DNA of 64,000 nucleotides from Petrimonas mucosa (GTDB taxonomy: Bacteria > Bacteroidota > Bacteroidia > Bacteroidales > Dysgonomonadaceae): the NCBI RefSeq assembly GCF_900095795.1, contig NZ_LT608328.1, positions 675,001 to 739,000 of the forward strand, written 5' to 3'. Numbering within the stretch: position 1 is the stretch's first letter; the number at the start of each line of letters is the position of its first letter. The notes under the pieces were generated by a model, which worked only from the letters and a program-made list of their open reading frames with translations, did no database searches and was not told the DNA's origin. Shown in pieces: positions 4,611 to 20,139 of the stretch. Position numbers and translations under genes: made by a program.

Positions 4611-4905
4611 GCACAACGGGCGGAGGATTTGCGAGGTTGCGGGGGGGGGGGGGATATCCACTATCCCTTGTAATCTCGCAAATCCTGTGTTCTACGATGT
4701 CGCCGTTAGGCGAGGAGTAGAATGCAGGATGTAATCCTCCGTCCGTTCTCCCGACGAGCCGAAGGCGATGTCGGGAGAACGTTTTGGCGCTTGGCGCAGT
4801 GGCGGATTTCGGAGCACAAAACTGTCAATACACCACAAAAGTTGATGCGAGGTAGAATGTTCAATTAACCACGTCACCCGCCATTGAGCCAAACGCCTGT
4901 TACCT
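4611..4905 (-). repeat. attC-like multi-hairpin element C (end of cassette C)
   Basis: Read on the minus strand it starts with the R''-like box AGGTAAC (4899-4905). Next comes a stem GGCGTTTGGCTCAATGGCGG (4878-4897) whose partner lies at 4786-4805, then a GTTCTCCCGAC / GTCGGGAGAAC hairpin. A third folded unit follows, with a run of 13 G on the plus strand at 4641-4653, and the element ends with the R'-like box GTTGTGC (4611-4617). The first box mirrors the start of the same cassette at 8922-8931 (GTTACCTGCT, 10 of 10). Bases 4615-4902 are almost identical to 8929-9213 apart from G-run length and a few substitutions. Confidence 0.75.
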
Positions 4906-4921
4906 GCTGTGTTTCTTGTCA

Positions 4922-5947
4922 TTATAGGTTCGTATTCAATAAGTTAATCCCAACATTCAACAACATTTTGGAAAATTCAAGTCCATTTATTAGTTGAATT
5001 TCATTTTCCTTGGCAAGATTTTCTGCCTTTTCATTGAAGGTGTTAGCTGTCGTTATAACCCAAGCGACTTTATTGTAGCCATCATCTATACTTTCTTTGT
5101 TTGTCTTATAATCTAAAATTTGAGTTGTTCCCCATTCACTGATTTGTCCTTTTTGAAATTTGGCTTGGGTGTAAATAATCAATTTTATATTTTCAAAAAC
5201 AGCTACAATGTCTGCATCACCTTCTTTGTTACTCTCATTTTTTGCAGGGATAGAGACTTCATTTGCTCCAATTGTCTTAAAATAAGTTTTAACCAATTTC
5301 TCAAATTTGTCTGGGTTCAATTCATTTTTAATTGCATCTAAAACAAGATTTGCAGTTTTGTCGATAATTATTGAGTGTAAATGAATTGGCTTATTGACTT
5401 TGTAATTTTCTATACTTTTTTCAATACTGGTTTTCAAGTCATTTATTGAGGCATTGGTTTGTCTTATTTTCATTCTTGAAGTAAGCTTGGCATCTGCAAA
5501 CTTGTCTCTTGAAATCTGTCTATAAAGGACTTTTACTTGTCTTGCAAAACCTAAATCGTATGCTTTTCCATTTTCAGAAATTAAGTGCGTTCCATTTGTA
5601 GAAACAGATTTGCCCCCCCAAGATTTAAGTCCTTCTGAAAAAGTCTCCCCTATTAACAAAGGTCTGTCGTCCGTAATTTCACACACAAAAAAAGTGCCCC
5701 AACTTGGGATTATTACAATGTCGCCTTTTGACATTTTCAGAAAATTCCAAAGGTTATGCCTTGTTCTTGGAACTGTTCCCCACATTTCTTGAAACTGTCC
5801 ATTGAAATAATTCCAATCGTTTGCTAAAACCTTGTCAATTAATTCACTATTTGTAAAATCTGAAAATCCAATTGTTAGGTATCCCTTGTCTAACAATGGA
5901 TAAGACAACTCTGCTACGTGGGAAATTCTATGAAGCCAATAATTCAT
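4922..5947 (-). CDS. Mrr-like restriction endonuclease (341 aa)
   Basis: Putative modification-dependent or self-standing restriction nuclease. The C-terminal half (about 195-335) has the Mrr catalytic fold of PD-(D/E)XK enzymes. It runs FEKLVKTYFKTIGANEV, then the acidic G-D244-A-D246 turn, and the Q261-A-K263 motif in IIYTQAKF, matching the Mrr D...QxK pattern. The N-terminal ~150 residues look like a separate specificity or PUA-like part (GFSDFTN, WGTFFVCEITDD), which I cannot name with certainty. It is the last gene of cassette C, 17 bp before the attC-like element, and follows the Asp-box gene across a strong hairpin. The start ATG is the only good one. Confidence 0.75.
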   Translation of the reverse strand: MNYWLHRISHVAELSYPLLDKGYLTIGFSDFTNSELIDKVLANDWNYFNGQFQEMWGTVPRTRHNLWNFLKMSKGDIVIIPSWGTFFVCEITDDRPLLIGETFSEGLKSWGGKSVSTNGTHLISENGKAYDLGFARQVKVLYRQISRDKFADAKLTSRMKIRQTNASINDLKTSIEKSIENYKVNKPIHLHSIIIDKTANLVLDAIKNELNPDKFEKLVKTYFKTIGANEVSIPAKNESNKEGDADIVAVFENIKLIIYTQAKFQKGQISEWGTTQILDYKTNKESIDDGYNKVAWVITTANTFNEKAENLAKENEIQLINGLEFSKMLLNVGINLLNTNL

Positions 5948-5985
5948 TTTGTGCTTTTTAAAGTTATTTGTAAAGTCAGTGACGA

Positions 5986-6017
5986 ATGTAAAAGCGGTGC
6001 TTGCACCGCTTTTACAT
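5986..6017. terminator. Perfect 15-bp stem hairpin between two cassette genes
   Basis: ATGTAAAAGCGGTGC (5986-6000) is followed by TT and its exact complement at 6003-6017. It sits between the Asp-box gene (ends 6026) and the Mrr-like gene (starts 5947). No clear U-run follows on the minus strand, so it may be an attenuating or RNA-stabilising hairpin rather than a classical terminator. Confidence 0.5.
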
Positions 6018-6025
6018 AATGTCTT

Positions 6026-6256
6026 TTAGCTTCTCTTATTCCAAGTTCTTCCGTCATTTGTAGAGTAGTAAAGACCTTTTGTTGTTTGACCCAAAATTTC
6101 TTTACCATTGTCTGTCAAGTCTTGGAAGTCTCCATAAGAACTGCCTGAATAACGAGTGTTCCAAGTCCTACCGTCATTGGTGGAATACTCAAGTTTGTTT
6201 TGTTGTTTGGGGCTTATACGGATTATTTCTTTGCCCCTGTTAATCATTTGTCCCAT
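6026..6256 (-). CDS. Asp-box (BNR-like) repeat mini-protein (76 aa)
   Basis: A small protein with two copies of a unit containing YSTNDGRTWN, the Asp-box pattern S-x-D-x-G-x-T-W found in sialidase-type beta-propellers. The copies begin near residues 24 and 65 and are separated by a segment with DLTDNGKEIL. Neither copy alone can make a propeller. No signal peptide or membrane segment is visible. It is the first gene of cassette C, and the IS21 element now sits about 55 bp upstream of its start. Function is unknown; it may be a fragment or a small beta-sheet protein. Confidence 0.6.
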   Translation of the reverse strand: MGQMINRGKEIIRISPKQQNKLEYSTNDGRTWNTRYSGSSYGDFQDLTDNGKEILGQTTKGLYYSTNDGRTWNKRS

Positions 6257-6382
6257 ATTTTATGGTTTTAATTGTTAGTGCTTACTCTAATCGGTTTTCA
6301 GCTTCCCCGTTTGTTTATTTCACCCCAAAAGTATACCAGTATTTCAATCCAAAAGTATACCATTTTAATTTAATCTCCAAGT

Positions 6383-6426
6383 CCGTTTCCCTGTTGGGGG
6401 CGGTACCGCCCCCAACAGGGAAACGG
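6383..6426. repeat. 44-bp perfect palindrome inside the IS21 left end
   Basis: The left half CCGTTTCCCTGTTGGGGGCGGT (here split as CCGTTTCCCTG and TTGGGGGCGGT) is followed without any spacer by its exact reverse complement. It lies 24 bp beyond the stop of istB and inside the left terminal region of the IS. As RNA it would form a very stable GC-rich hairpin, so it may end istB transcription or block read-through from the flank. As DNA it can extrude as a cruciform. Confidence 0.8.
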
Positions 6427-6450
6427 GCGTTCTTATTCTGACTGTTATTT

Positions 6451-7209
6451 TCATTTTCCATTCATCATTTTTTCTGTTTCTTTCAGCCGGTATGAGTCTC
6501 CGGACATATTTACAAGATATGCCTTATGGGTTACCCTGTCTACCAGTGCCGCTGTAAGGACGGGGTCACCAAAGATCTCTTCCCACCGGTCAAAGCCGAG
6601 GTTCGTGGTAATGATGGTCGATTTCCTGCCCGTTCTTAAGGAGAGATGGTTAAACAACAGTTCAGAGCCTTGCTTGTCAAAGGATACATATCCAAACTCA
6701 TCGCATATGACCAGGTCATATTTTTCAAACTGGGCTTCTACCTGTTTCAGTGTGCGCCCGGAGTGGGATTCACGTAACTGTGTCAACAAGCGGTGTACTG
6801 TGGTGAACAACACTTTATACCCCTGCATGCAAGCCTTAAGCCCCAACCCTATGGCGATGTGTGTTTTGCCCGTACCCGGGTTGCCGGAGAGGATCACGTT
6901 CCGGGCCGCCGGGATGAAGTCCAGTCTTTCCAGTAAAGGGAGTTTCTCCCTGGCACCCGGAGGTAACTGGTCACGCTCAAGGTCGGAAAGATACATTTTA
7001 GACGGGAACCGGGCATTCCTTATTTGCGCTTTCTTCCGGTTCTCAAGCCTGAGTTCATATTCACGTTCCATGAGCATTACCAGGTACGCTTCATAATCAA
7101 GCCCCTGTCGGGCCGCTTCTGTTGCCAGTTCCTTGTAATCACGCCTGAAAACAGGCAGTCGGAGCTCTTTACTGTATGCTGTTATTTGCCTGTTGATAGT
7201 GTCCATCAT
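6451..7209 (-). CDS. istB: IS21 helper ATPase IstB (252 aa)
   Basis: AAA+ ATPase related to DnaC that partners with the IstA transposase and shapes target DNA during IS21 transposition. Walker A is GNPGTGKT (109-116), and Walker B is LVICDEFGYV (about 168-177). The usual family length is 250-260 residues, so the protein looks intact. Its start overlaps the 3' end of istA by 41 bases, the typical coupled arrangement of IS21. A 44-bp palindrome follows the stop. Confidence 0.95.
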   Translation of the reverse strand: MMDTINRQITAYSKELRLPVFRRDYKELATEAARQGLDYEAYLVMLMEREYELRLENRKKAQIRNARFPSKMYLSDLERDQLPPGAREKLPLLERLDFIPAARNVILSGNPGTGKTHIAIGLGLKACMQGYKVLFTTVHRLLTQLRESHSGRTLKQVEAQFEKYDLVICDEFGYVSFDKQGSELLFNHLSLRTGRKSTIITTNLGFDRWEEIFGDPVLTAALVDRVTHKAYLVNMSGDSYRLKETEKMMNGK

Positions 7210-8758
7210 AGTTTGTTTTTTGCATTAGCCCGGCGATGCCGGCAAGTTGTTCTTTGGCCTTGATACTTATCGTATCTTCCGGCTCCCAGGTTGGGTTTAC
7301 ACGGGGTTTATTTCCCAGCAGGGCCCGAAGCTTTTCCACGCTGATTCCCTGGCAGCCGGTGTCCAGTAATCGCTTAAGGGATTCCTCGAGTCTCTCACGG
7401 CTCACCATTTGCCCGCGGCAGTATGTGAGCAGGTCGATAAATTCACGGGGTTCGCTTTGGAAATAATCCATGTACAGCCCTTTAAGGTAATGGCTGCCGG
7501 CAAGTGCCAGGCTACCAGCCAGGGCGCCCGGTTTCTTCTTGAATGTTGACAGGTAATGCTCTATCTCCACATTCCAGGAGTGTTTTTCGTAACTACGTAC
7601 ATGAACGGCCACCCGTTTGTTTTGCACGTACACCTGCAACTCGCGGCTGCGGACACTCACATCGACAAACTCTCCCACCAGGTGATCGGGAACCGAGTAG
7701 CGGTTGGTGCGATAGCTGATGGTGGCATATTTATCCACCCGCAACTGCACCTGTTCACTGCAGACAAGCTCCATGGCCGGATGCTTGCCCAAAAGGTTCT
7801 TCTCCTGAGAGAACAGTTCGTCGGCGCTCTTGCCTGTTCCCTGCTGCTTCCCCGCATTGAGCCTTTTAAGCGTTGCATCAAGCCACTGTTGGGCCTCCAG
7901 GATGTCCGCAAAGGCATCCTTGGGGGCGAACGCTTTACGGCGGACATACTCCACGCTCCGTTCCACGTGACCTTTTTCGTTTCCACGGCATATGTTGCAA
8001 AAGCGATGCCTGAACTGATAGTGCCCCCGAAGCTGGAGCAGTGACCGGGTGGGCTCCTTTTCATGCGGCCCGACAAACCTGGCTACCGCAACACGCATAT
8101 TATCGTAAACCATCTCACGGTAGACGCCACCAATGGTTTTAAAAAAACGCACGTGAGATTCCATGAAAGCCAGGGTATCCTGCCGCTCGTAAATAAAAGC
8201 ATAGCGGTAATTGCTGAAGGCGGAGGTAAAAACAGCAAGTTGCAATGACCTGCGTTTCCCTGCAATGCAGAGTTTGATCTCACCCCAGTCAAACTCACAG
8301 GTTTCCCCGGCCTGATAAACCTGGCGAATAAATGCTTCTTTGGTTACTACCCGGTTCTCCCTGCGCGCAATATGATTACAAACCGTGGTATAGCCAATGT
8401 CAAACCCTCGCCGGTGAAGTTCCTCAAGGATGTCCTTTTTCTTTAGCATCTGCTTGCGCAGGCCTTGCCCACGCTTACGCTCGTTGTCTTCAAGTAATTC
8501 ATCGATGACAGTTTCCACCTCGCGTGTTAATTTGAGCCTCAGACGAGGTGTAGCCATTTTATAGACCGGTTCACTGGATAGATTACACGATTGCGCTGTT
8601 TCTTTACAGACTGCCGATTGCAATGCCTTTTCGTGTTCCTGCAGGTACTTCCTGATTGTTTTGCGACTAATTTGCAAATCACGGGCTATTTGACGCTGAC
8701 TTTTTCCATCGCGGAAGCTGCTAATTATAATCTCCTGTTTTGTATACATACTTATCAT
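7169..8758 (-). CDS. istA: IS21 transposase IstA (529 aa)
   Basis: DDE recombinase of the IS21 family. The N-terminus has a helix-turn-helix of the resolvase/Hin kind (SQRQIARDLQISRKTIRKYL, residues ~20-39). The catalytic core shows CEFDWGEIKL (first D), the VYDNMRVAV region (second D) and GNEKGHVERSVEYVRR (E). The C-terminal part is basic and binds the element ends. The frame is complete and of normal length. The upstream 87 bp to the IS end contain the inverted end repeats, which also probably overlap its promoter. Confidence 0.95.
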   Translation of the reverse strand: MISMYTKQEIIISSFRDGKSQRQIARDLQISRKTIRKYLQEHEKALQSAVCKETAQSCNLSSEPVYKMATPRLRLKLTREVETVIDELLEDNERKRGQGLRKQMLKKKDILEELHRRGFDIGYTTVCNHIARRENRVVTKEAFIRQVYQAGETCEFDWGEIKLCIAGKRRSLQLAVFTSAFSNYRYAFIYERQDTLAFMESHVRFFKTIGGVYREMVYDNMRVAVARFVGPHEKEPTRSLLQLRGHYQFRHRFCNICRGNEKGHVERSVEYVRRKAFAPKDAFADILEAQQWLDATLKRLNAGKQQGTGKSADELFSQEKNLLGKHPAMELVCSEQVQLRVDKYATISYRTNRYSVPDHLVGEFVDVSVRSRELQVYVQNKRVAVHVRSYEKHSWNVEIEHYLSTFKKKPGALAGSLALAGSHYLKGLYMDYFQSEPREFIDLLTYCRGQMVSRERLEESLKRLLDTGCQGISVEKLRALLGNKPRVNPTWEPEDTISIKAKEQLAGIAGLMQKTNYDGHYQQANNSIQ

Positions 8759-8858
8759 TCTTTATGAACGAAGTTGTTCCGTTCAAGTTTGTAAGTGGTA
8801 TACTTTTCGATTGAAATGTGGGGTACTTTTACACTAATATATACACCCCGTTTCCCCG

Positions 8859-8866
8859 CAAAGTTA
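8859..8866 (-). promoter_or_regulatory. Possible -7 promoter box of cassette C, cut off from its gene by IS21
   Basis: On the minus strand TAACTTTG matches the Bacteroides -7 consensus TAnnTTTG. A TTTG lies upstream at 8881-8884, but the spacing of 14 is shorter than the usual 19-21. If real, it would have driven the Asp-box and Mrr genes, and the IS21 insertion now separates it from them. Confidence 0.3.
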
Positions 8867-8924
8867 AATTGTCAGTCCGTCAAAACGTGTCGTTGTCTTT
8901 ATGCACTGTCGTTTTTAACATAGC

Positions 8925-9216
8925 AGGTAACGGACGGAGGATTTGCGAGGTTGCGGGGGGGGGGATATCCACTATCCCTTGTAATCTCGCAAATCCTGTG
9001 TTCTACGATGTCGCCGTTAGGCGAGGAGTAGAATGCAGGATGTAATCCTCCGTCCGTTCTCCCGACGAGCCGAAGGCGATGTCGGGAGAACGTTTTGGCG
9101 CTTGGCGTAGTGGCGGATTTCGGAGCTCAAAACTGTCAATACACCACAAAAGTTGATGCGAGGTAGAATGTTCAATTAACCACGTCACCCGCCATTGAGC
9201 CAAACGCCTGTTATCG
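8925..9216 (-). repeat. attC-like multi-hairpin element B (end of cassette B)
   Basis: On the minus strand it starts with the R''-like box CGATAAC (9210-9216) and ends with the R'-like box GTTACCT (8925-8931). Between them are three foldable units: a 20-bp imperfect stem (GGCGTTTGGC...GCCAAGCGCC), an 11-bp perfect hairpin (GTTCTCCCGAC / GTCGGGAGAAC), and a ~113-bp unit closed by the 15-bp perfect repeat AACGGACGGAGGATT / AATCCTCCGTCCGTT, which holds a run of 10 G. The R'' box with its neighbours (plus strand GTTATCGGT) mirrors the start of cassette B on the minus strand at 19115-19107 (9 of 9). Confidence 0.75.
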
Positions 9217-9276
9217 GTTCGGTGTTCTTCTTCGTCCGTTGGTTTGTCGGTCGTTTTGGTGGTGCGGTTGGACAGA

Positions 9277-9335
9277 CACACACATTGCCAAGCTTGGGTT
9301 GTAGCGTGGGCTTGTGCGGCTTGGCAATGTGTGTG
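9277..9335. repeat. 16-bp stem hairpin downstream of the helicase gene
   Basis: CACACACATTGCCAAG (9277-9292) and its exact complement at 9320-9335 enclose a 27-base loop. It lies in the 140 bp between the helicase stop and the attC-like element B. Next to it is TTGAGCGTTGGC (9340-9351), a word also found in the folded sequence at the opposite end of cassette B (19041-19052). It may be a terminator or the remains of an older recombination site. Confidence 0.55.
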
Positions 9336-9357
9336 GCTGTTGAGCGTTGGCATTTGT

Positions 9358-11967
9358 CTATTCTGGTTCGTTTACAAAACTTTCTTCATAATCTTTTCTG
9401 CTCAAAACAGTGTCGTACAAACCTACGTCTTGTCCTTCGTGCTTATTGATTCCAATATATTCCAAACTTGCGTCTTCATACCGTTTGAATTTGTAAACAG
9501 CATCATTCATTAAAGCAGAGTTGAACACGCCAAGGCTTACCAATAATTCAAAGTCTTTCACTGACAAACCTGTTACTTTCTTGAAAAGCCCAGGCTCTAA
9601 TTGTGTGATTACGTCTCTCAAACTTCGTTCTCGGTAGTCTGTCAGATACATAAACACAGGTACACGAGTAGCGAACTTGATTAGCTTTTCTTGGATTTGC
9701 TTTCTTAGGCTCTTGTACTCTTTTTCTTCGTCTGAAAGTTCTTTTTTCTCTTTCTTGGTCAGTTCTCGGTCGTTGGCTTCTTTCTTTGCTTTTTTAACTG
9801 CTTCTGATTTATTGATAATAGTTTCAATGTCCTGATTCAAATTCCTGAAACCTTCAATGTTCATTAAAGCTTTCATTGCCTCTTCGTTTGCCATCAATCG
9901 GGCAAGGGTGTTATTGTCCACATTTACGAGTAAGGCACTTTCCCATCGTCTTGCTAAAAGCGTTGCGGTTGTGCCACTCATTGCCATATCTAAAATTCCC
10001 ACTGCATCCACTTGCTTCATTGAACTGCCGTCATAAGCCAATACTGGTAGGAAGTTGATAAACTCAGCAACTTTTGCTTCGGGGTTTGATTCGTTTACAT
10101 TAAGTCGGCAACTGTAATCGGCAATTTGCCTTAATGCACGGTCGGGAGCAAAGTCAAAAACGTAACATTCTTCTTTCAGTATTTCTTCTTTGTTGGGCGA
10201 TTTGCTGTCTGGGTTTTTAATAACCCACGGTGTTTGTACTCGGAATGCTGCTTGGAAATACGTTTCTGGACTGGAAGAATTTCGCAACATAAAGATACCT
10301 GTCCACGGCTTTACGGAAACACCTGTAGTCAATTTACCACAAGAGAGCGTAATAGTTTTAGAATCCAGTGGATTGTCTGTCATTGCATCTAATACTGGTT
10401 GCAATGCTTCTACGCCAATTCCTGCTTCCGTTCCTGCTGCAACTACTACTTTGTAATCATGGTAAAATTTATTCTGTCTCTGTTTCAATAGATTGGCCAT
10501 TGCGTTACAGGCTGCAACGGTTGGTAAAAACCAAAAAGTGTGATTTAGTACTTTGAGCAATGGTGCGTGTGAAAAAGGAAGTGGCGGTTTTTTGGCTCCC
10601 ATTTTCAAATGGTCAACGGTAGTTTCGCTAAATGCGCCTCGGATTAAATCTAACCATTTTTGTACTTCGTCTTCGTATTTGAATCGGGCATTTCTTCCTT
10701 CTCCTTCGGCCGAAAAGAAAACATTCAAGTCAAATCCGTCAAACTCGCCTTGCATTGCAATCTGGCGAATGGAGTCTGGAAGTTGATACGTGAGCATTAC
10801 CATTCTCGGCAAGGACGCATACGGATTCGGTCCTTTGGATTCATCCCAGTTTTCCTTAGCTCGTTGCTCATCAGAATAGGTCCAATTGTAAATTTGTTCT
10901 TCGATAAATTCACCTGAATTTATCGCCCGAAAGGGTGTTCCGGATAAATACAAAAAGTGATTGGCTTTGATGGGCAGTATACCTTCTAATACATCGGCTT
11001 TTTTATCTTCAGCAAACCCTTCTTTTTCTATTTTTTTGAATTCTTCCATTTCTTTTTCAGCATCGCTGTCTCTATCAAAAAGGTCTTTCGCATTGTCCCG
11101 CCAAGCCCCGAAATGGTATTCATCAAATACAATGCAGTCCCATTCTGTTTTATGAACCCACTCGTTTTTAACTTTAATACTGCCATCTTTTTGTGTTCCC
11201 AAATAGTCTTGGAAGGAACCAAAACAAACCAAAGGTTTATTGTTATCTATATTTTCGCTCGTAAGTTCATCTGATTGTTTGGATATAAACTGCCAACCTT
11301 TAAAGTCCACATGAGACAATAGATCTTCTTTCCAAGCATTTTCTACTGCAGGCTTGAAGGTTAGCACTAACAATTTTTTCCACCCCATTTTTTTAGCCAA
11401 CTGGTAAGTGGTAAAGGTTTTTCCAAAACGCATCTTAGCATTCCATAGAAAATGAGGTGGTTTGTTGGGATTTTCTTTCTTATAATTTTTGAAATAAATA
11501 AATGTTTTATTTACGGCTGCTTCCTGCTCCGGACGCATACTGTATGTATGCACACGGTTTTCTTCTGTTCTTTCTCCTGTTTTGATTTCCCACATCGCTC
11601 TGCGTAAATCATTTAAAGTACATTGAAACCACTCTCCCTCAGGGTTTGCAAATCCTAATTTACGCAAATGTCTATGTACATCCCGGTCAATGAAGGAACT
11701 GCCGTCGCGCTTCATTGCCGATTCTTCAAATACAATTTTGTATGGAATGGCTGCCGTGCCTAATTGCTCTTTGATACGTGTTTGTGCATCACGGTCGGTA
11801 TAGCCGATTTTTAGCAAACCTTTGTGCGTGTCCACACCTACCAACTCATAAGCGTAAATAGTTGGATTAGTGTTGGGGCGTGCCGGGAAAAATGCTTTTT
11901 TACTCATTTCAATAATTTTCTGTTTTCTAATTCTTGCAAAATTTGCATCTGCTGTTTGGCTATTCAT
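9358..11967 (-). CDS. GIY-YIG-like/DEAD-type helicase, restriction subunit (869 aa)
   Basis: Putative restriction subunit of the cassette B operon. Residues ~36-130 look like a GIY-YIG/T5orf172 nuclease-type domain (IYAYELVGVDTHKGLLKIGYTD). A superfamily 2 helicase follows: motif I AKMRFGKTFT (177-186), motif II DEYH (282-285), motif III SGTPFRA and motif VI QAAFRVQ. A lysine- and glutamate-rich coiled region lies near 745-780. The listed ATG overlaps the KilA-N stop as ATGA. The ATG at 11907 (MSKKAFFPARP) is probably the ancestral start, because almost the same words recur right after the methyltransferase stop at 12303. It most likely cuts unmodified DNA together with the upstream methyltransferases. 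Confidence 0.8.
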   Translation of the reverse strand: MNSQTADANFARIRKQKIIEMSKKAFFPARPNTNPTIYAYELVGVDTHKGLLKIGYTDRDAQTRIKEQLGTAAIPYKIVFEESAMKRDGSSFIDRDVHRHLRKLGFANPEGEWFQCTLNDLRRAMWEIKTGERTEENRVHTYSMRPEQEAAVNKTFIYFKNYKKENPNKPPHFLWNAKMRFGKTFTTYQLAKKMGWKKLLVLTFKPAVENAWKEDLLSHVDFKGWQFISKQSDELTSENIDNNKPLVCFGSFQDYLGTQKDGSIKVKNEWVHKTEWDCIVFDEYHFGAWRDNAKDLFDRDSDAEKEMEEFKKIEKEGFAEDKKADVLEGILPIKANHFLYLSGTPFRAINSGEFIEEQIYNWTYSDEQRAKENWDESKGPNPYASLPRMVMLTYQLPDSIRQIAMQGEFDGFDLNVFFSAEGEGRNARFKYEDEVQKWLDLIRGAFSETTVDHLKMGAKKPPLPFSHAPLLKVLNHTFWFLPTVAACNAMANLLKQRQNKFYHDYKVVVAAGTEAGIGVEALQPVLDAMTDNPLDSKTITLSCGKLTTGVSVKPWTGIFMLRNSSSPETYFQAAFRVQTPWVIKNPDSKSPNKEEILKEECYVFDFAPDRALRQIADYSCRLNVNESNPEAKVAEFINFLPVLAYDGSSMKQVDAVGILDMAMSGTTATLLARRWESALLVNVDNNTLARLMANEEAMKALMNIEGFRNLNQDIETIINKSEAVKKAKKEANDRELTKKEKKELSDEEKEYKSLRKQIQEKLIKFATRVPVFMYLTDYRERSLRDVITQLEPGLFKKVTGLSVKDFELLVSLGVFNSALMNDAVYKFKRYEDASLEYIGINKHEGQDVGLYDTVLSRKDYEESFVNEPE

Positions 11968-12227: not shown

Positions 12228-12271
12228 AATTTTGTAAATCCGTTAATCCTGAAAATCTTGCTTCAGACAAT

Positions 12272-12303: not shown

Positions 12304-12304
12304 T

Positions 12305-13810
12305 TTATTCCATTGGTCTTATTAAGGTATCAATGAACTTAATTTCACTCGCTGTGATGCCATATTTTGCAAATAATTTCTCATCAGTCCATTCTTCGTT
12401 GAAATCTTGGATTGGTACAAAAGCAAATACACCCCTAGAAATATTTTGTGTGTTTTTGATTAATGACATCATAAATCGGAAAAAACGTGTGTGCATATAT
12501 TTTGCCACATTCTCTGCAATTTTTTTGTTTTTATAAATGCCAACAACTAGATACGTCTCAGTACAACAAGACATTTTATCAGCGACAATTGGTTTACTAA
12601 TTATTTGATGAGGATATGAGTCTCCGCCCGGACTGGCTTTGGAAACCAAGACTTTTATTTCATTTACCCAATGCTTATTCTTTATCACTTGTTCTTCGCT
12701 CACAAATCCGTTATCTCCAAATCTGTATAGCAAGATATTATGCTTATCCGTTTTACTCTTTTTGAAACCTGAAAAATTGGAATCAAGTCCAAAGGGCTTT
12801 CTTGCACTCACTGTTTCATCAAATGTCTTTTCATTGAACTTCTTAACTTTTCTAAGTATGTCAATTGCTTCATTGTATCTTACAAAGACGTCAGACTTTG
12901 GCTCTAATAACGGTCTTTTTGAAGTGCTCAGAATTGTACCATTTTTGTAATTTGTAATTGTACAATCCCCTTTGTGCTCTCTGTCCCAAAGAAAATAGCA
13001 CACACCACCACGAATATTTAGACCAGGAAAACAATCAGATGTTTCTGGAAAATCGTGAATTTGAGCTAATCTTTTATCTTTCAGCATTTCATCTCTAAAT
13101 TCATCAAGTCCTTTGCCGCCTGAGTACCATCTTGCAGGAACAATCATTGAGAGATATCTTGGATTCAATTTCTTTGCTTGTTCAATAAATTTGTGATAAA
13201 GTGAAATTGCACCTGAATCACGACCACCGCCATCACTCATTTGATAAGGTGGATTTCCAACGATAACGTCAAATTTCATATTGAATATTTTTTCAGGTTT
13301 GTCTGTGTGAATAAAATTGTAAGCGTAGGTTTCCAAAGCATCTTCTCGGTCATACACTTCCTGGCTGGCTCCGCAATAGGTGCATTTACCGTTTTGCCAG
13401 GTGTGTTGCATACGTTCGTAATAGATATTGCCTTGCTCATTATCAAAAGTCTCGCATATAGAGTATTTACCATTGGCTGTTTTGGAGCAATACACGCTTC
13501 TGCGGCTTAATAAGCTGGTAAGTTCGGTAATGGCAATTCCATAGAGTTGTTTGCTAAAAATATGGTTAATGCGTTCCTGCTTGTCGGGAATTTGGGTTTC
13601 CAAACCGTGCATTAGTCGCTTAGCCATTTCACGCAAAAACACACCACTTTTAGAAACAGGGTCTAAAAATTTGGCGTTTGGGTTGCTCCACAACTCAGCA
13701 GGGAGCAAGTCCAAAATATCATTCACCAAACCGGGTGGCGTAAATACTTCGTCATTGCTCAAATTGGCAAGACAGGAGAGTACGTCAGGGTTATAGTTCG
13801 TTTGTATCAT
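12305..13810 (-). CDS. Adenine-specific DNA methyltransferase subunit, Eco57I-like (501 aa)
   Basis: N6-adenine DNA methyltransferase with the catalytic motif IV NPPY (186-189, in DVIVGNPPYQMS). A degenerate motif I is seen at FLDPVSKSGVFL (48-59). Residues 143-146 form a CxxC pair (CTYC) that may bind metal. The C-terminal half has no clear motif and may recognise the target sequence. Its start overlaps the end of the preceding gene by 20 bases. That gene carries a fuller motif I but no NPPY, so the two probably act together or are parts of a split enzyme. Confidence 0.8.
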   Translation of the reverse strand: MIQTNYNPDVLSCLANLSNDEVFTPPGLVNDILDLLPAELWSNPNAKFLDPVSKSGVFLREMAKRLMHGLETQIPDKQERINHIFSKQLYGIAITELTSLLSRRSVYCSKTANGKYSICETFDNEQGNIYYERMQHTWQNGKCTYCGASQEVYDREDALETYAYNFIHTDKPEKIFNMKFDVIVGNPPYQMSDGGGRDSGAISLYHKFIEQAKKLNPRYLSMIVPARWYSGGKGLDEFRDEMLKDKRLAQIHDFPETSDCFPGLNIRGGVCYFLWDREHKGDCTITNYKNGTILSTSKRPLLEPKSDVFVRYNEAIDILRKVKKFNEKTFDETVSARKPFGLDSNFSGFKKSKTDKHNILLYRFGDNGFVSEEQVIKNKHWVNEIKVLVSKASPGGDSYPHQIISKPIVADKMSCCTETYLVVGIYKNKKIAENVAKYMHTRFFRFMMSLIKNTQNISRGVFAFVPIQDFNEEWTDEKLFAKYGITASEIKFIDTLIRPME

Positions 13811-14441
13811 CTTCTCCTAATTTTAAGAAATGAATAAGCGGAAAATCCTTTACAGGTTCGTCAATGGCTGCTGCGTTGCCTTCATCATTAAACAAAGAAA
13901 ATTGGTGCGATTTTTCCACTAAAAATTTAAACATATAATCTCTGCGTTTCAGCATAGAGCCATTTACCGCACTCCATTCCGAAAATATAATCGGCTCCTT
14001 GGTTATTGGATTTGTAAAGTCCAAAGCATCGCCCCACAGAATATTTCTGCTCAATAAAAACTTAACACTCCTTCTGCATTCGTCTTTACATTTGTCCTTG
14101 AATAAAGAAATATATCGTTCGTTAAAAATATTATACAGTCGCTCTCTACACTCCTGAGCATTATCTTCCAAAATATCCACACCGTATATACTTGAAACAG
14201 CGATTACAGCATAGCGTTCCCATTCCACTTGACTTTTGCTGTATCGGCTGTCCACCACTGCTAATTTTCGTCTCAAAACTTCTGCTAAAAAATTGCCATT
14301 ACCGCAAGCAGGTTCTAAGAAACGTGAGTCAATGCGTTCCGTTTCGTGTTTTACCAAATCGAGCATAGCGTTTACTTCACGTTCGTTTGTAAACACTTCA
14401 CCGTGGTCTGTAACTCGTTTTTTGGATTTTACTTGGCTCAT
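13791..14441 (-). CDS. DNA methyltransferase subunit with SAM-binding motif I (216 aa)
   Basis: A small protein with a good S-adenosylmethionine motif I, FLEPACGNGNFLAEVL (41-56), and an acidic loop YGVDILEDNAQE (about 81-92). It lacks the NPPY catalytic motif, which the next gene has. A WGDALDF segment near residue 136 fits motif III. Its ATG overlaps the stop of the split nucleotidase gene (TAATG), so translation was probably coupled before the IS insertion. Together with 12305-13810 it forms the modification half of the cassette B system. Confidence 0.75.
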   Translation of the reverse strand: MSQVKSKKRVTDHGEVFTNEREVNAMLDLVKHETERIDSRFLEPACGNGNFLAEVLRRKLAVVDSRYSKSQVEWERYAVIAVSSIYGVDILEDNAQECRERLYNIFNERYISLFKDKCKDECRRSVKFLLSRNILWGDALDFTNPITKEPIIFSEWSAVNGSMLKRRDYMFKFLVEKSHQFSLFNDEGNAAAIDEPVKDFPLIHFLKLGEDDTNEL

Positions 14442-14741
14442 TAATTTTCTACTTTTTCTGTGTCTTTAGCGTTTACAATCATTTCTGTTTCAAAATTTTT
14501 CAAGATTGAATCCGATTTGTATAGCACTTTTCCACAAGGTACCTTAGTTTGAGAATCCACCAAATGTCTGTCTTGGTCATCAAAAAATATGTGTGTGCCA
14601 ATAGCTTCAAGAACTGGAGCCTTAGGCCACCCTCCTAAAAAGTACGCTTCGTCAACGTAAACGTTCCAACTTCTCAAAGTTTTTATTACTCGCATATGAC
14701 TAGGTGAATTTCTTGCTGTAACAATCGCAATTCTTAAAGGA
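14441..14741 (-). pseudogene. 5'-nucleotidase (PF06189-like), C-terminal part, split by IS
   Basis: This is the last ~99 codons of a cytosolic 5'-nucleotidase. It begins at PLRIAIVTARNSP and includes RVIKTLRSWNVYVDEAYFLGG and the acidic HIFFDDQDRHL motif of this HAD-like family. The N-terminal part lies at 18281-18959, beyond the IS1380-like element. Joining the halves at the 5-bp duplication AAGGA restores the frame ...KELS-PLRIA... and a protein of about 324 residues, normal for the family. The remaining frame upstream of 14741 runs into IS sequence. Confidence 0.85.
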
Positions 14742-14762
14742 CCTAAAAGTCTCAAATAAAAG

Positions 14763-14833
14763 TTGCATGTGTCAGATAAAGTATTTATCTTTAAGGTGTT
14801 AAATAAAAAATAACACTCACCCGACACATGCAA
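14763..14833 (+). promoter_or_regulatory. Hairpin that would hide the transposase start codon
   Basis: TTGCATGTGTC (14763-14773) is complementary to GACACATGCAA (14823-14833), which contains the ATG of the transposase (14828-14830). Smaller stems lie between them (GTGTTA / TAACAC at 14796-14816). A transcript entering from outside the IS would fold and block this start codon, a known protection strategy in other IS elements. A promoter inside the loop could still make translatable RNA. Confidence 0.5.
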
Positions 14834-15910
14834 TACAAAAATAGTAAAAAAATCTCATTTACTGCCAGTTCAGTAAAGAAAGAGTTCAGTTCAGAACAAT
14901 TAACGTCATATTCAGGGTTAAGCGTAACCTCTGATTTTATCAACCATTGCGGCATTTATCGTCGGTTGGAACATCTTTTCCCAACCATCCGCCACAATGC
15001 AAGCCGTTTCAGCACAGCCCAAATACTCTCAAGTATCCTGTTGGCATCGTTGTGCGGTGTTCACCGTTTGAAGCGGATTGAAAACTTCACCTTTGACGCC
15101 TTGGTTGCCCGCTTGTTGAAGTTACCCAAGAACATTGACGAGGACACCATACGCCGCCATTTGACAGGTTTGGGTGAAAGGGGCGCCCGTTCGCTTCACG
15201 AGCTGTTGTTGGGTTTTACAGGCATGCAAGTTTCCCGTTGCGGTTTAAGCCGCTTGACACTTGATTGCGACTCAAGCACATTTACCGTTTACGGCAACCA
15301 ACAAGGGGCTGAGGTGGGTTATAACTCGCATAAGAAGGGTTCGAAAAGCTATCACCCCATCTTATGTTTTGTCACGGAGATGAAACTGCTTGTCAATTCA
15401 TGGCTCCGCCCGGGTTCAGCTTACACCTCAAACGGAGTTTGTGAGTTTGTCAAAGAAACCTTGGCCGCTCTTCCCCAAAAGGTGGAGAAGGTGTTTTTCA
15501 GGGCCGACAGCGGTTTTTTCAATGGTGGATTATTTAATTTGTTAGAAGACGGTAAACATGAATATTTGGTGAAAGTAAAGCTGAAAAACCTGAAAGATTT
15601 ACTTGCCGGGCAGACTTGGCAGCCGATTGGCCCACGGACGGCGACCTGTCAGTTTACACATCAATGTAGCGGTTGGAGGAATCCCCGCATGTTTTATGCC
15701 GTGCGCATCATAAAGCAAATGGTTGAAGTCGATTATTTTGGCGAAAAACAATTTGTACCCGAGTATGAGTACTTTTGCTATTGCTCGAACCTGAAAGGAT
15801 TGGATGCCTTGCAGCTCCATACCCTTTATGGATCCCGATCAGAGAGTGAGAATTGGATCGAGCAAACCAAAAACTCGCTTTGTGCGGGAAAAACCATCAC
15901 GCATGATTTT
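14828..15910 (+). CDS. IS1380-type transposase, 5' exon (361 codons)
   Basis: The first 361 codons of a DDE transposase. The conserved region LTLDCDSSTFTVYGNQQGAEVGYN is typical of IS1380, and a second acidic site is seen in VFFRADSGFFNG. The third, SRSESENWIEQTKNSL, comes before the interruption. At HDF the gene is broken by the group II intron. The frame reads on into the intron for 39 more codons and stops at 16027. The 3' exon is at 17803-18048. RNA splicing would restore a protein of about 442 residues. Unspliced RNA would give a C-terminally altered protein. Confidence 0.88.
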
Positions 15911-17802
15911 GTTTGCTATGCATGTTCATTATCTATAGGGTTAAAGTCCCGAGCGGGCTTATTTTGGCGAGAACCGTTAGTTGATGGCAAGGGTGTTACC
16001 GCGAGGTATAACCTGAAAGAAGCCTAAAACAAAAGTTGGTACTAACGAACAGAAACTGCATACTAAGGCTTACCCGGGGGGTAATGTGGCAATAAACACA
16101 GACGCCCTAAAGCCGTCCGTAACCCGGGGTAGTAAATGCAGTAGTATTAACAGGAAGATAATGCACTTAACGTAGGAGGTCTCTAACCCGAAAGGGGCAG
16201 AGAAGTCAGCAGAGGCCATAGTACCGCTATAAATATTGAGTAACGTCAATACAGGGAAGGGCTGAATTTTCAATTAAGGAGCAGTTATTTTGTAAATTGT
16301 AACGACCATTATGAACCCAGGTAAACACGGGAACTTACAGATGAGTCTTTTTGACGAATGGGAGCGTGGCCAAAAGGTGAAGGGGACTGACGTATTCAGT
16401 TCAGGAAGCGGTTTGGTACGGGACGAGTGGTTGTCAGGTTGCAAAGAGGAACGAGCCTTAACCCAAGATTTAATGAGTGATATAACGGACTTAAAGAATC
16501 TTGATGCCGCATTGCGGCAAGTAATCAGTAACAGGGGAAGTGCGGGCATTGACGGGATGACCGTTGACGAACTTAGAGATTGGCTTAACAGCCACCACCG
16601 AGAACTTCAACGCCAGTTAATGACAGGCACATACCAAGTTACGGCAGTTAAAGAGGTATTAATCCCGAAGCCTGATGGCGGGAAACGCCAACTGGGTATT
16701 CCCACGGTCAAAGATCGCTTGGTACAACAAGCGATAAGCCAAGTACTGTCGAAACGTTATGACCCTATATTCTCCGAATACAGCTACGGTTTTCGTCCAC
16801 GGCGTAACGCTCATCAAGCATTACGTAAAGCGGGCGAATACGTGGCCGAAGGAAAGGATTGGGTTATCGACATAGACTTGGCAAAATTCTTTGACGAGGT
16901 GAATCACGACCGATTGCTTTGGCAGTTAAGTACTCGCGTTGGTGACAAGCGCGTACTTAAGTTGATAGGTAAATTTCTTCGAGCAGGAATGCTAATCGGG
17001 GGGATGGCCAATCAACGGGTGAAAGGGACACCGCAAGGCAGCCCACTATCACCCCTGTTGTCGAATATCGTCTTAGACGAACTGGACAAGGAGTTAGAGC
17101 GGAGAGGACACTGCTTTGTACGCTACGCCGATGATATTATCATAATGGTCGGAAGCGAACCAGCCGCGGAGCGATCGATGCAAAGCCTCTCCAAGTTTAT
17201 CGAAAATCGGATGCGATTAAGAATAAACAAGGAAAAGAGCCATATCGTCCGTCCTCATCAACTCAATTATCTCGGCCATACTATCTTAAAAGGCGGGAGT
17301 TTAGGATTAAGCCGAAAGAGCGAACAACGCTTCAAGGCGAAACTAAAATCGCTTACCAAACGCAACAGGGGCATTAGCTTCGATCAGTTAATAAGCGAGC
17401 TAAATCCCGTTCTACGAGGCTGGCTAAACTACTTCAAGCACGCAAAGATGAAAAGTCGTCTTCGCAACCTTGAAGCTTGGCTTCGTCGTAGATTAAGATG
17501 CTATCGTTTAAAACAATGCAAACGGGCGTTGGGCATAGCCAGGTTCTTGACCAAGTTGGGCGTTCCTTGGAACCGGAGCTGGACAACGGCGGGAAGTTCT
17601 AAGGGATGGTTTAGACTGTCAATGACCCACGCTGCACACGAGGGAATGAACCTTGAATGGTTCAAGAAAACGGGACTTTACAGTTTAACGGCCAATTACG
17701 GTTAAACATTGAAGAAACCGCCTAATACGAGAGACGTACGTTGGGTGGTGTGAGAGGATAGCAGAGTTAGGAGTAATTACCTATCTTTGCATCCTACTCG
17801 AT
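15911..17802 (+). mobile_element. Group II intron inside the IS1380 transposase gene
   Basis: The boundaries follow from restoring the transposase frame: ...CAT GAT TTT | TGG GTA AAC.... The intron then starts GTTTG and ends CTCGAT, and is 1892 nt long. It encodes a reverse transcriptase in the same direction. Near the 3' end is the domain V stem (ACCGCCTAATACG...CGTACGTTGGGTGGT, about 17715-17748) followed by domain VI. The 5' GTTTG differs from the common GTGYG, so the exact 5' base has a small uncertainty. The last 286 bases are identical to the copy at the left edge of the window. Confidence 0.88.
16311..17705 (+). CDS. ltrA: Group II intron reverse transcriptase/maturase (464 aa)
   Basis: Intron-encoded protein that promotes splicing and target-primed reverse transcription. 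Reverse transcriptase blocks include RGSAGIDGMT (76-85), IPKPDGGKRQLGIPTVKDR, YSYGFRPRRNAHQA (158-170), VKGTPQGSPLSPLLSNI and the active site YADD (272-275). The maturase GIIM domain follows (LNPVLRGWLNYFKHAKM). I see no HNH endonuclease domain at the C-terminus, so mobility would rely on nicked or replicating targets. The frame is intact. Confidence 0.93.
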   Translation: MNPGKHGNLQMSLFDEWERGQKVKGTDVFSSGSGLVRDEWLSGCKEERALTQDLMSDITDLKNLDAALRQVISNRGSAGIDGMTVDELRDWLNSHHRELQRQLMTGTYQVTAVKEVLIPKPDGGKRQLGIPTVKDRLVQQAISQVLSKRYDPIFSEYSYGFRPRRNAHQALRKAGEYVAEGKDWVIDIDLAKFFDEVNHDRLLWQLSTRVGDKRVLKLIGKFLRAGMLIGGMANQRVKGTPQGSPLSPLLSNIVLDELDKELERRGHCFVRYADDIIIMVGSEPAAERSMQSLSKFIENRMRLRINKEKSHIVRPHQLNYLGHTILKGGSLGLSRKSEQRFKAKLKSLTKRNRGISFDQLISELNPVLRGWLNYFKHAKMKSRLRNLEAWLRRRLRCYRLKQCKRALGIARFLTKLGVPWNRSWTTAGSSKGWFRLSMTHAAHEGMNLEWFKKTGLYSLTANYG

Positions 17803-18048
17803 TGGGTAAACGATATTCTTTGGCAACTTTCGTCATTTGCCTACAGTTTATCGGTGCTCATGCGATACCGGGGCGACTTTTGGGTTTGGCGCCAAGAGCA
17901 CTCTACCTTCCGAGAATGGTTTATCCGAGTGCCGGGTAAAGTGGTGAAATCCGGCAGGCAGGTCACGGTAAAAATGCCTAAGGAGTATTACCGAAAAGCG
18001 GGGTGGCGTGATTTTGAGCAGCGAATAACGACAACGATGACCGGATGA
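17803..18048 (+). CDS. IS1380-type transposase, 3' exon (81 codons plus stop)
   Basis: Continues the transposase after the intron with WVNDILWQLSSFAYSLSVLM and then FREWFIRVPGKVVKSGRQ, the typical C-terminal end of IS1380 transposases. It is in frame with codon 361 of the 5' exon when the intron is removed. The internal ATG at 17854 is not a true start. The stop lies about 230 bp before the right end of the IS. Confidence 0.85.
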   Translation, partial: WVNDILWQLSSFAYSLSVLMRYRGDFWVWRQEHSTFREWFIRVPGKVVKSGRQVTVKMPKEYYRKAGWRDFEQRITTTMTG

Positions 18049-18280
18049 CGGATTTTCACTTAATCGTCCATCGCCATCTTTCGTGTCGTAAAAGGGTTTA
18101 TGACAAGGAATTGCCATGCCTTGGAAGAGTGGTAATGTTAATATATATAAAAACGCCACCATAAAAAGTAAATCAACACGTTAAACGTGCAAGAAACAGT
18201 GAAGATGAAAAGAAAATAAAGAGAAATTCCGCTTTGAAAACTATTAACTTGAGTTGGGAATTTTAAATGAGATTTTTAAG

Positions 18281-18959
18281 AAGGAGATAATTCTTTTTCA
18301 ACTGGCAATTGATCTTGAATATCTGATAACTTTCTTAATAAAGCAGCGAATGGTCCATCATTTAATGGTACATTTTCTTTTTCTTTTTCGTGTTGATGAA
18401 AGGCTTCAATATTTTGTGTTTTATAAATGATTTCTGATTCTTCCGAAAACACTACTGCATCTGCATCAAAGGTAAACTTAACTCTGTCTGTTTCAGGTGT
18501 AAAATGCTCAGGAGGGTCATAAACTAGAGCTGTTGCACAACTTGACGAATCAATTATTTTCTGAACGTCTTTCTCGTCTTTAGATAAAAAGAGGTCAATA
18601 TTGAATGCTTTTATAAATGGTGCAAGTGGTTCACCTGCTGAAAATGCCCATCGAGTAAAAGGTAATCCATAATGCTCAATGGATTTTAGAATCCTTAAAC
18701 CAGTTTCAGGGCTATTTTTAGACATAATAACCACTTCAACAATTGGTGATTTGGCGTCAACGTGCTTATTCAGTTTTAGCAGTGCTTCTATTAATGGAAA
18801 GGCTGTTCCTTTTTCAAGTAATTTATCCTCATTGGCAAATTGATATTCACGGAAACCCCGTACATTTTTTTCTTTGAATATTCTTTCTTCTTCTTCAAGA
18901 TTGAATAATGCTCTAGAAGAAACACCAACTACTAATATTTTTGAAAAGTCTAATCCCAT
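18281..18959 (-). pseudogene. 5'-nucleotidase (PF06189-like), N-terminal part, split by IS
   Basis: The first ~226 codons of a cytosolic 5'-nucleotidase that would release nucleosides from nucleoside monophosphates. Family features seen are ILVVGVSSRALFNLEEEERIF at the start, VEVVIMSKNSPETGLRILKSIEHYGL, FNIDLFLSKDEKDV and the acidic TFDADAVVFSEESE motif. The frame breaks at KELSP, exactly at the target duplication of the IS1380-like element. The other half is at 14441-14741. It was the first gene of the cassette B operon and overlapped the methyltransferase gene, which is unusual company for a nucleotidase. Confidence 0.85.
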
Positions 18960-19016
18960 TTATTTTTTTTCTCGTCAAATTTACTTTTTTATGTCTGTTC
19001 GTCTGTCCGTGCGTTG

Positions 19017-19086
19017 GCAAAAAATGGCTCTTTTGGTTTTTTGAGCGTTGGCTCGTGTGTCGGCAAAAACCAAATGTGCCATTTGC
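19017..19086. repeat. Imperfect long palindrome at the start of cassette B
   Basis: GCAAAAAATGGC...TTTTGGTTTTT pairs with CAAAAACCAAA...GCCATTTGC. The loop holds TTGAGCGTTGGC (19041-19052), which is also beside the hairpin at the other end of cassette B (9340-9351). It lies between the nucleotidase start and the attC-like element A and may be a remnant of an older recombination site. Confidence 0.5.
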
Positions 19087-19108
19087 GGTTCGGCTTTTTT
19101 ACACTGAC

Positions 19109-19458
19109 CGATAACGGACGGAGGATTTGCGAGGTTGCGGGGGGGGGATATCCACTATCCCTTGTAATCTCGCAAATCCTGTGTTCTACGATGTCGCCGT
19201 TAGGCGAGGAGTAGAATGCAGGATGTAATCCTCCGTCCGTTCTCCCGACGAGCCGAAGGCGATGTCGGGAGAACGGTAAATTGTATGGTGCGTAGGGCAT
19301 CAGAAAGCACTTTCCTGTCAAACCGCTAAGTAGCCGAAGCGCAGGTTTGACAGCTACAATTTGACTAACCGTCGAAGCTGCGCTTCGGCGGAGTTGAAGA
19401 AAGCGCAAAAGATTCAAATATAGCATATCCGCCCTATGCACTATACAAAATGTTAGCG
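19109..19458 (-). repeat. attC-like multi-hairpin element A (end of cassette A)
   Basis: On the minus strand it starts with the R''-like box CGCTAAC (19452-19458) and ends with the R'-like box GTTATCG (19109-19115). Its first stem differs from elements B and C: GCCCTATGCACTATACAA (19431-19448) pairs with 19281-19298 (16 of 18), and inner stems such as CTGTCAAACC / GGTTTGACAG lie between. The next parts, the GTTCTCCCGAC hairpin and the 15-bp AACGGACGGAGGATT repeat unit with a 9-G run (19113-19275), are shared with B and C. The R'' box and its neighbours mirror the cassette A start at 20126-20118 (GTTAGCGTT). Confidence 0.75.
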
Positions 19459-19486
19459 TTTCGTACTTTTATTTTTCAGTCATAGT

Positions 19487-20044
19487 TTACCATTTCTTTG
19501 CATTGAATCCAAGGTTCAATTGTAACATAATTGGGAAAAATCCACTGTTACCTTTTGTGTCGAAATAATAAACAGGTCCCATATCAAAAAGTAGGTGCAT
19601 CTTTCCATAAGCTCTTTGTATTCCCCAAGTTGGTCCAAAGTCGAAACTTATATCGTCAATTCGGTAAATATTTTTTGATTCAATTTCTTTGAAGTTGGTT
19701 AAGAGTCTTAATCCCCAATAATTTCCTGAATTATAATTTAAATTTTTCCCTTTTGATTGTCTTTTAGTCCGATTGTAAATCTTTTTGTATGACAAGTCCA
19801 AAAACGGCGAAATATAATATGTTACTCCACTTACCAAATAATCATACTCAAGGTGCATATAACTACCATGAATTCCAATTCCTGGATTTATTGCAATAGT
19901 CGATTTATTTGAAATCGGCATCTCAAATTCTAGTCCAGGGTTTAAGGCATTTATTCTAAATACTTTACTCAAATCGTTGGTTACTTCCTGTCCAAAGCTT
20001 GTCAAACTAATCGTTAAAGTGATTAGTAAAAATAGTTTTCTCAT
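19487..20044 (-). CDS. Secreted outer-membrane-type beta-barrel protein (185 aa)
   Basis: The protein begins with a clear signal peptide (MRKLFLLITLTISLTSFGQ, cleavage near residue 19). Alternating aromatic and polar strands follow, such as MHLEYDYLVSGVTYYISPFLDLSY and MHLLFDMGPVYYF, and it ends in a strand that finishes with W (NLGFNAKKW). This fits a small outer membrane beta-barrel. I do not recognise a named family or function. It is the cassette nearest to the recombinase: the attI-like site lies 73 bp upstream of the start and the attC-like element A about 30 bp downstream of the stop. Confidence 0.7.
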   Translation of the reverse strand: MRKLFLLITLTISLTSFGQEVTNDLSKVFRINALNPGLEFEMPISNKSTIAINPGIGIHGSYMHLEYDYLVSGVTYYISPFLDLSYKKIYNRTKRQSKGKNLNYNSGNYWGLRLLTNFKEIESKNIYRIDDISFDFGPTWGIQRAYGKMHLLFDMGPVYYFDTKGNSGFFPIMLQLNLGFNAKKW

Positions 20045-20116
20045 TTCTTGCTTTTGTTTAAATATAAATGTTAAAAATTAAAGTTTTATTTGTCTAATTG
20101 CTCGGTCTTTTGGTAT

Positions 20117-20139
20117 GAACGCTAACGTGTTGTTTACGC
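20117..20139 (-). other. Candidate attI-like recombination site
   Basis: On the minus strand the sequence reads GCGTAAAC-AACAC-GTTAGCGTTC. GTTAGCGTT is the start of cassette A and recurs inverted at the end of that cassette (19452-19460). The GCGTAAAC word upstream is a partial inverted partner (5 of 8), as in the two core boxes of an attI site. It lies 163 bp from the recombinase start, on the side where an integron would take up cassettes. Confidence 0.5.

What the first reader, a model, noticed from the sequence alone, without database searches (positions are those of the whole stretch)
4611..20139. Integron-like cassette array in a Bacteroidota chromosome
Three complete units each begin with a GTT box and end with an inverted copy of their own first bases: A, GTTAGCGTT at 20126-20118 and 19452-19460; B, GTTATCGGT at 19115-19107 and 9210-9218; C, GTTACCTGCT at 8931-8922 and 4899-4908. 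The words differ between units but match within a unit. This is the rule for integron cassettes, where the first bases after G^TT complete the cassette's own attC. All array genes share one direction, away from an IntI-like recombinase. Whether this type has been described before I cannot check.
Basis: partly seen in the sequence, partly recalled or inferred. Interest (0 to 1): 0.93.

Follow-up and report, generated by a model that had tools for sequence, protein, structure and literature searches.

The report
Integron with a stripped-down integrase
In a Petrimonas chromosome, genes sit in a row of cassettes that each end in a fold-back DNA site matching the cassette's own first bases, beside a recombinase that likely inserts and removes them although it lacks the extra helix held to be essential for integron enzymes.

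Summary
The ~165-bp module is a separate gene-less mini-cassette, X (12 copies in this genome, six at stray sites). The real attC sites lie before it (19272-19454, 9089-9212, 4778-4901). Here and in other genomes 26 of 39 and 13 of 40 consecutive units match at 7 or more edge bases, against 23 of 1482 and 42 of 1560 non-own pairs. A ~60-bp attI ends at G^TT; in two relatives 99% identity stops exactly there and different cassettes follow. The bottom strand is predicted to fold better in 24 of 24 sites. The recombinase is not IntI: it misses the TIGR02249 cut-off, lies outside the IntI clade and lacks about 44 residues including the I2 region, held necessary for cassette capture (PMC7790495, passages). 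Canonical IntI passes the cut-off in 1 of 61 relatives; 38 of 61 carry these attC sites. Recombination is untested. Searches found no description. New variant of a known kind.

The parts
20303..21145 (+). 280-aa tyrosine recombinase (Phage_int_SAM_4 + Phage_integrase), the proposed cassette integrase; no IntI-type insertion between the KDR and LRH motifs
20126..20190 (-). attI: conserved ~60 bp with two ACGAA(A/T)GTT repeats, crossover between G20126 and T20125
   Evidence: 12 sites laid out by hand; second copy at G000:C1:1730430-1730463
19275..20126 (-). gene cassette A, edge word GTTAGCGTT / AACGCTAAC
19487..20044 (-). cassette A gene, 185 aa, no Pfam or PADLOC match
19272..19454 (-). attC of cassette A
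   Evidence: model R1, E 4e-07; this site was not in the training set
19116..19274 (-). gene-less mini-cassette X, copy 1 (R1 places its site at an inner hairpin, 19113-19185)
9092..19115 (-). gene cassette B (10 kb, enlarged by insertions), edge word GTTATCGGT / ACCGATAAC
18276..18959 (-). 5'-nucleotidase family gene (PF06189) in cassette B
13791..14441 (-). type II methyltransferase-like gene in cassette B
12305..13810 (-). Eco57I-type methyltransferase gene in cassette B
9358..11967 (-). T5orf172 + ResIII restriction gene in cassette B (type IIG-like)
14828..16027 (+). DDE transposase (PF13701) inserted in cassette B
15995..17803 (+). group II intron with reverse transcriptase (16311-17705) inserted in the 3' end of that transposase gene; right limit approximate
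9089..9212 (-). attC of cassette B (118 nt between AAC and GTT)
8932..9091 (-). gene-less mini-cassette X, copy 2
4781..8931 (-). gene cassette C, edge word GTTACCTGCT / AGCAGGTAAC
4922..5947 (-). Mrr-type restriction endonuclease gene of cassette C (PF04471)
6451..8758 (-). two overlapping ORFs that look like an IS21 istA/istB pair inserted in cassette C (named from recall, no family call made)
4778..4901 (-). attC of cassette C
4618..4780 (-). gene-less mini-cassette X, copy 3
2672..4564 (-). gene of a further, truncated cassette D (start 4617): PADLOC candidate defence family PDC-S06, first 625 of 851 model positions

Best explanation
The locus is a chromosomal integron-type cassette array of Petrimonas in which a 280-residue tyrosine recombinase without the IntI-specific I2 insertion likely cuts and rejoins DNA between G and TT at one attI site and at folded attC sites. 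Shown by comparison: units start at G^TT, carry their gene, and end in an imperfect palindrome whose first arm complements the unit's own first 8-10 bases, so that a circularised unit would rebuild one full hairpin; attI is conserved and the unit behind it varies. Inferred: the bottom strand of the free cassette folds, the recombinase joins it to attI (first place) or attC, and replication resolves the junction as in known integrons. The 160-bp unit X is a cassette with no gene that likely spread by the same reaction into attI, attC and stray sites. By family match the cargo here is largely phage-defence-like.
For: Edge rule: 26 of 39 and 13 of 40 consecutive model-found units match at 7+ bases, non-own pairs 23 of 1482 and 42 of 1560. 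Chains of 2+ units: 14 real and 0 in reversed control near recombinases of 48-96% identity; 14 real and 1 control in 53 more distant loci. attI conserved over ~60 bp with seven different first units behind 11 readable sites (five share the IS91-type element). G009 and G002 are 99% identical up to the crossover and then carry different first cassettes; the window matches both only up to the crossover. Arm covariation: mean 16.0 of 20 pairs against 10.97, maximum 12.30 of 500, with arms re-dealt among 25 sites. Bottom strand more stable in 24 of 24 rebuilt sites (24 of the 26 with edges of 7+). All 62 attC hits in 32 loci lie on the strand facing away from the recombinase (loci partly overlap, and many training sites lie there). 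attC present in 21 of 22 genomes with a recombinase match at 1e-40 and in 17 of 39 without, p 3e-5. X empty sites: 4, 3 and 17 uninterrupted copies of the same target show the junction without duplication.
Against: No recombination was observed; no circular junctions could be sought. 17 of 39 genomes without the recombinase still have attC hits, so enzyme and sites are not strictly tied, and one recombinase genome (G026) has none; the 22 also count weaker matches, in G032 only the IS91-type element's enzyme. 13 of 39 and 27 of 40 consecutive pairs did not reach 7 bases; four are X units, several look decayed by one or two changes, the rest are unexplained or span a missed site. One plasmid locus with the same attI (L238) shows no attC hit, and no attI was recognised at G016. 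G009 and G002 share long array blocks in the same order. Published work holds the I2 helix necessary for cassette capture (PMC7790495, PMC9668308, passages), so an enzyme without it should not work by the known mechanism. The 25 sites used for the model were picked with the edge rule and a stem score.
Confidence: 0.82

Rival explanations
1. The array is a true integron array but the 280-aa recombinase is not its integrase; a canonical IntI in other cells or XerC/XerD built it and the recombinase is a passenger beside attI.
For: 17 of 39 relatives without a recombinase match carry attC hits; the enzyme lacks I2.
Against: Canonical IntI passes the cut-off in 1 of 61 relatives; attC model R1 finds 0 sites in ten 20-kb stretches beside canonical IntI, two of which do carry edge-rule arrays; recombinase and attI are conserved as one block, and the sequence behind the gene is not the window's in G002, G009 and G006 (in G008 the contigs break); the first cassette starts within about 180 bp of the gene in the window and in L085, L090 and L095.
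Confidence: 0.13
2. The recombinase is a diverged member of the IntI family that secondarily lost I2, so this is an ordinary integron with a degenerate enzyme.
For: TIGR02249 still scores 231 bits (cut-off 265); the C-terminal SPL motif is shared with 2a3v; IntI arrays of other Bacteroidota obey the same edge rule.
Against: With thinly filled columns, the insert among them, left out, 12 IntI rows form one clade (100/99) and the 16 Petrimonas/Flavobacteria rows another (100/99); none is nested in IntI. The root is undetermined, so loss before the split is not excluded.
Confidence: 0.2
3. The repeats are a MITE or insertion-sequence family (X) scattered at GTT targets, and the array look is an accident of several insertions.
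For: X occurs 12 times in the genome, six times outside attI and attC; an IS91-type element in relatives also inserts at G^TT.
Against: X has no target duplication at the three targets compared with uninterrupted copies; gene cassettes without X obey the edge rule in many genomes; X is absent from 295 other phylum genomes searched (same-genus genomes were not searched whole for X) while the array type is common.
Confidence: 0.03

Closest known systems
Canonical integrons with IntI (VchIntIA, IntI1)
   Same: attI next to a tyrosine recombinase, G^TT crossover, attC arms that complement the cassette's own start, bottom strand predicted to fold better, cassettes in one direction
   Different: No I2 insertion: of the eight VchIntIA residues named as contacting extrahelical bases (PMC3053210, passage) six (209, 210, 219, 232, 240, 241) fall in the stretch 182-243 that has no aligned counterpart here; separate clade; inner stem pairs at one constant offset, so no clear bulged base, though the comparison with controls is inconclusive
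Canonical IntI integrons already known in the Bacteroidota/Chlorobi group (Salinibacter ruber and others; PMC9024848, passages)
   Same: Phylum in the wide sense, edge rule
   Different: TIGR02249 passes the cut-off there (70 of 247 phylum genomes; of the 75 genomes with a match three are listed as same class, one of them over the cut-off); the two such arrays examined are not found by the attC model R1
Archaeal XerA and Xer recombinases (5hxy, 4a8e)
   Same: Nearest solved structures by sequence and model; NF040815 cut-off passed
   Different: Xer enzymes act on dif in chromosome resolution (recalled); here the gene stands beside attI and a cassette array
Gene-less cassettes reported in superintegrons (recalled, no call)
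   Same: A cassette that is little more than its attC
   Different: X has 12 near-identical copies including stray sites; an unrelated mini-cassette of the same plan alternates with gene cassettes on a Chryseobacterium plasmid

Membership tests
Integron integrase IntI | IntI-specific additional (I2) domain near patch III | tested here: not met
   KDR-LRH spacing 63-69 in 25 of 31 non-IntI rows, the window's among them (5 unreadable, 1 misread), 105-108 in 32 of 32 IntI rows, 28 of which were chosen with a >80 filter and 2 of 30 dropped; 2a3v residues 182-243 unmatched
Integron integrase IntI | TIGR02249 curated cut-off (265 bits) | tested here: not met
   231.1 bits
Integron integrase IntI | Nests in the IntI clade | tested here: not met
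   IntI clade 100/99 without it; tree unrooted
Integron | attI in cis, conserved up to the crossover | tested here: met
   12 sites laid out, conserved up to G^TT; alignment ends at the crossover; two plasmids alike up to G^TT with a few substitutions
Integron | attC: own-start complementarity and imperfect palindrome | tested here: met
Integron | Bottom strand of attC is the folded one | tested here: met
   Energy prediction only, 24 of 24
Integron | Extrahelical bases in the folded attC | tested here: inconclusive
   One bulge improves pairing by 2+ in 7 of 25 sites here and in 13 of 17 control rows; the control rows include mirror readings and a doubtful one
Integron | Variable cassette content at a conserved platform | tested here: met
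Integron | Integrase-dependent excision and insertion | not testable with these tools
   Needs an experiment
XerA (NF040815) | Model cut-off 220 bits | tested here: met
   239.2 bits; the model's own description includes integron integrase
Insertion sequence or MITE (for X) | Target-site duplication | tested here: not met
   Three of six stray targets compared with 4, 3 and 17 uninterrupted copies; none duplicated

The most novel reading that the evidence does not exclude
Bacteroidota carry a second class of integron whose integrase never had the I2 helix: an I2-less, Xer-like enzyme that captures cassettes through folded single-stranded attC sites, either the ancestral state from which IntI arose or an independent invention, with its own parasites (gene-less mini-cassettes that spread to attI, attC and stray sites).
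Probability: 0.5. Interest if true: 0.95.

Novelty: new variant of a known kind. Interest (0 to 1): 0.88.

Why it matters
Published work holds that integrons arose when a tyrosine recombinase gained the I2 helix, which reads extrahelical bases and impedes the second strand exchange, and that the domain is found in no other protein and is necessary for cassette capture (PMC7790495 and PMC9668308, passages). An integron-type platform that lacks I2 and recurs in Bacteroidales and Flavobacteriales would make the origin of integrons directly testable: either I2 is dispensable or another part of the enzyme does its work. It would also mean that integron surveys keyed to the IntI domain overlook a large cassette pool, including plasmid-borne arrays in Chryseobacterium, and it would give a model for gene-less cassettes that behave as parasites of the system.
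Full report
WHAT IS THERE. The window is bases 675001-739000 of a 3.72-Mb single-contig genome whose same-genus relative G002 is Petrimonas sp. IBARAKI: its contig has the length of AP018040.2, which came back with the matching recombinase locus. Reading from the recombinase at 20303-21145 leftwards, the order is attI, gene cassette A, X, gene cassette B, X, gene cassette C, X, truncated cassette D. Each of the three complete gene cassettes ends in its own attC; a covariance model (R1) built from 25 sites, two of them from the window (B and C), finds six sites in the array, among them the four that were not in its training set, at E about 4e-07. For X the model lands on an inner hairpin, not on the outer arms that carry the edge match. 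Cassette B is 10 kb in part because a DDE transposase gene and a group II intron have landed in it.

THE EDGE RULE. For neighbouring attC sites found by R1 the word after the first site is the start of the cassette and the word before the next site is its end. In 12 loci (two of them pieces of one array) 26 of 39 such pairs match at 7 or more bases, 15 of them at exactly 10, against 23 of 1482 non-own pairs; 0 of 10000 re-dealings reach the observed total. In a second, less selected set 13 of 40 reach 7 bases against 42 of 1560, again 0 of 10000 (a few rows are the same units in G009 and G002). The misses: in the first set 4 of 13 are X units; several in the second differ by one or two bases, as decayed units would; the rest are unexplained or have a site missed between them. 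After base 10 an A stands opposite C in 16 of 24 units (opposite G in 7 and A in 1), and bases 12-14 match in 16 of 24. On the bottom strand an A-C mismatch becomes a G-T pair, and the rebuilt sites fold better on the bottom strand in 24 of 24 cases (mean -34.9 against -31.1 kcal/mol). The stem score used to pick the training sites favoured G-T pairs on the top strand, so the picking works against this result.

ATTI AND EXCHANGE. Upstream of the recombinase gene about 60 bases are conserved in 12 Petrimonas-type sites, laid out by hand at G^TT, with seven different units behind the 11 readable ones (five share the IS91-type element). No such site was recognised at G016. A second attI without a recombinase heads a second array in the same genome (1,730,463). 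Recombinase plus attI match at 97% over 1,022 bases in G008, G009 and G002 (the query was cut at 20127). A comparison without that cut ends within three bases of the crossover: window against G009 and G002 at 99%, and G009 against G002 at 99.3% over 2,271 bases; beyond it the first cassettes differ, while blocks of 7.1, 1.7, 4.1, 2.2 and 1.0 kb further out are shared in the same order. So the order is not freely shuffled between these two; the change sits at the attI end. Behind the recombinase gene the window's flank is not found beside it in G002, G009 or G006; in G008 the contigs break. Two Chryseobacterium plasmids with a related recombinase are alike, with a few substitutions, up to G^TT downstream of the gene and then differ; one has five attC hits, the other none.

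HOW WIDE. Among 61 relatives, 22 have a recombinase match at 1e-40 (some weak; in G032 only the IS91-type element's enzyme) and 38 have attC sites; 21 of 22 against 17 of 39, p 3e-5. Chains of two or more units occur beside recombinases in Petrimonas, Chryseobacterium, Epilithonimonas and Plebeiobacterium, and, with a longer recombinase of about 43% identity, Hymenobacter and Seramator. In the Chryseobacterium sp. Leaf394 locus, with five chained cassettes, the recombinase ORF is listed with a late start (207 aa) and some stretches are masked. A protein search found 5533 relatives at 1e-30 among the 7998 candidates that were scored, a lower bound.

X. Ten of 12 copies are identical outside a C-run of 8 to 14. 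Six lie in attI or attC sites, six at stray sites: G^TT four times, G^TA and G^AT once each. Uninterrupted copies of three of these six targets (4, 3 and 17 of them) show the empty junction. GNT targets and a lax second base are known for IntI1 (PMC10127599, passages). X was found in no other of 296 phylum genomes searched; the same-genus genomes were not searched whole for it. On the plasmid NZ_CP041688.1 an unrelated gene-less unit of the same plan stands at attI and at three further G^TT places behind attC sites, so such units recur.

CARGO. By family match: type IIG-like restriction genes, an Mrr nuclease and PDC-S06 in this array; type I restriction-modification and a RelA/SpoT-domain protein in the second array.

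SHOWN AND INFERRED. Shown: the edge rule, attI boundary, orientation, arm covariation, differing cassette content, absence of the I2 stretch. Predicted: strand preference. Inferred: that this recombinase moves the cassettes, through a folded single strand, and that X moves by the same route. Not in print as far as the searches reach; papers were seen as listings or passages only, and the library holds no bioRxiv and few subscription papers.

Noticed in passing
L053:12943-15083, L055, L056, L182-L196 (Petrimonas sp. IBARAKI and relatives): A 2.1-2.4-kb IS91-type element (PF04986, PF14319) with a tyrosine recombinase 39% identical to the window's sits between G and TT at several attI-like sites, attC ends and other places; a pair of the same gene types is annotated on the plasmid NZ_CP094530.1.
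   Followed up: partly
L237:12919-13089, and copies starting at 15014, 17395, 20464 (NZ_CP041688.1): An unrelated ~171-bp gene-less mini-cassette, four copies, alternates with gene cassettes on a Chryseobacterium plasmid.
   Followed up: partly
window 15995-17803 and 1-287: A group II intron inside the 3' end of a transposase gene; 287 bases of its end region (17517-17803) are identical to the first 287 bases of the window, likely a second copy.
   Followed up: no
G000:C1:1749536-1757173: Further attC-like sites at the far end of the second array, and about 5 kb beyond them a stray X copy in the opposite direction.
   Followed up: no
L124, L126, L103 (Hymenobacter), L237; compare L140, L112: A longer recombinase type (about 43% identity) often carries its array downstream of the gene instead of upstream, though L140 and L112 have sites on the other strand.
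   Followed up: partly
genomes without the recombinase, such as G042 (13 sites) and G049 (13 sites): 17 of 39 relatives have attC hits without a detected recombinase, like integrase-less cassette clusters.
   Followed up: no
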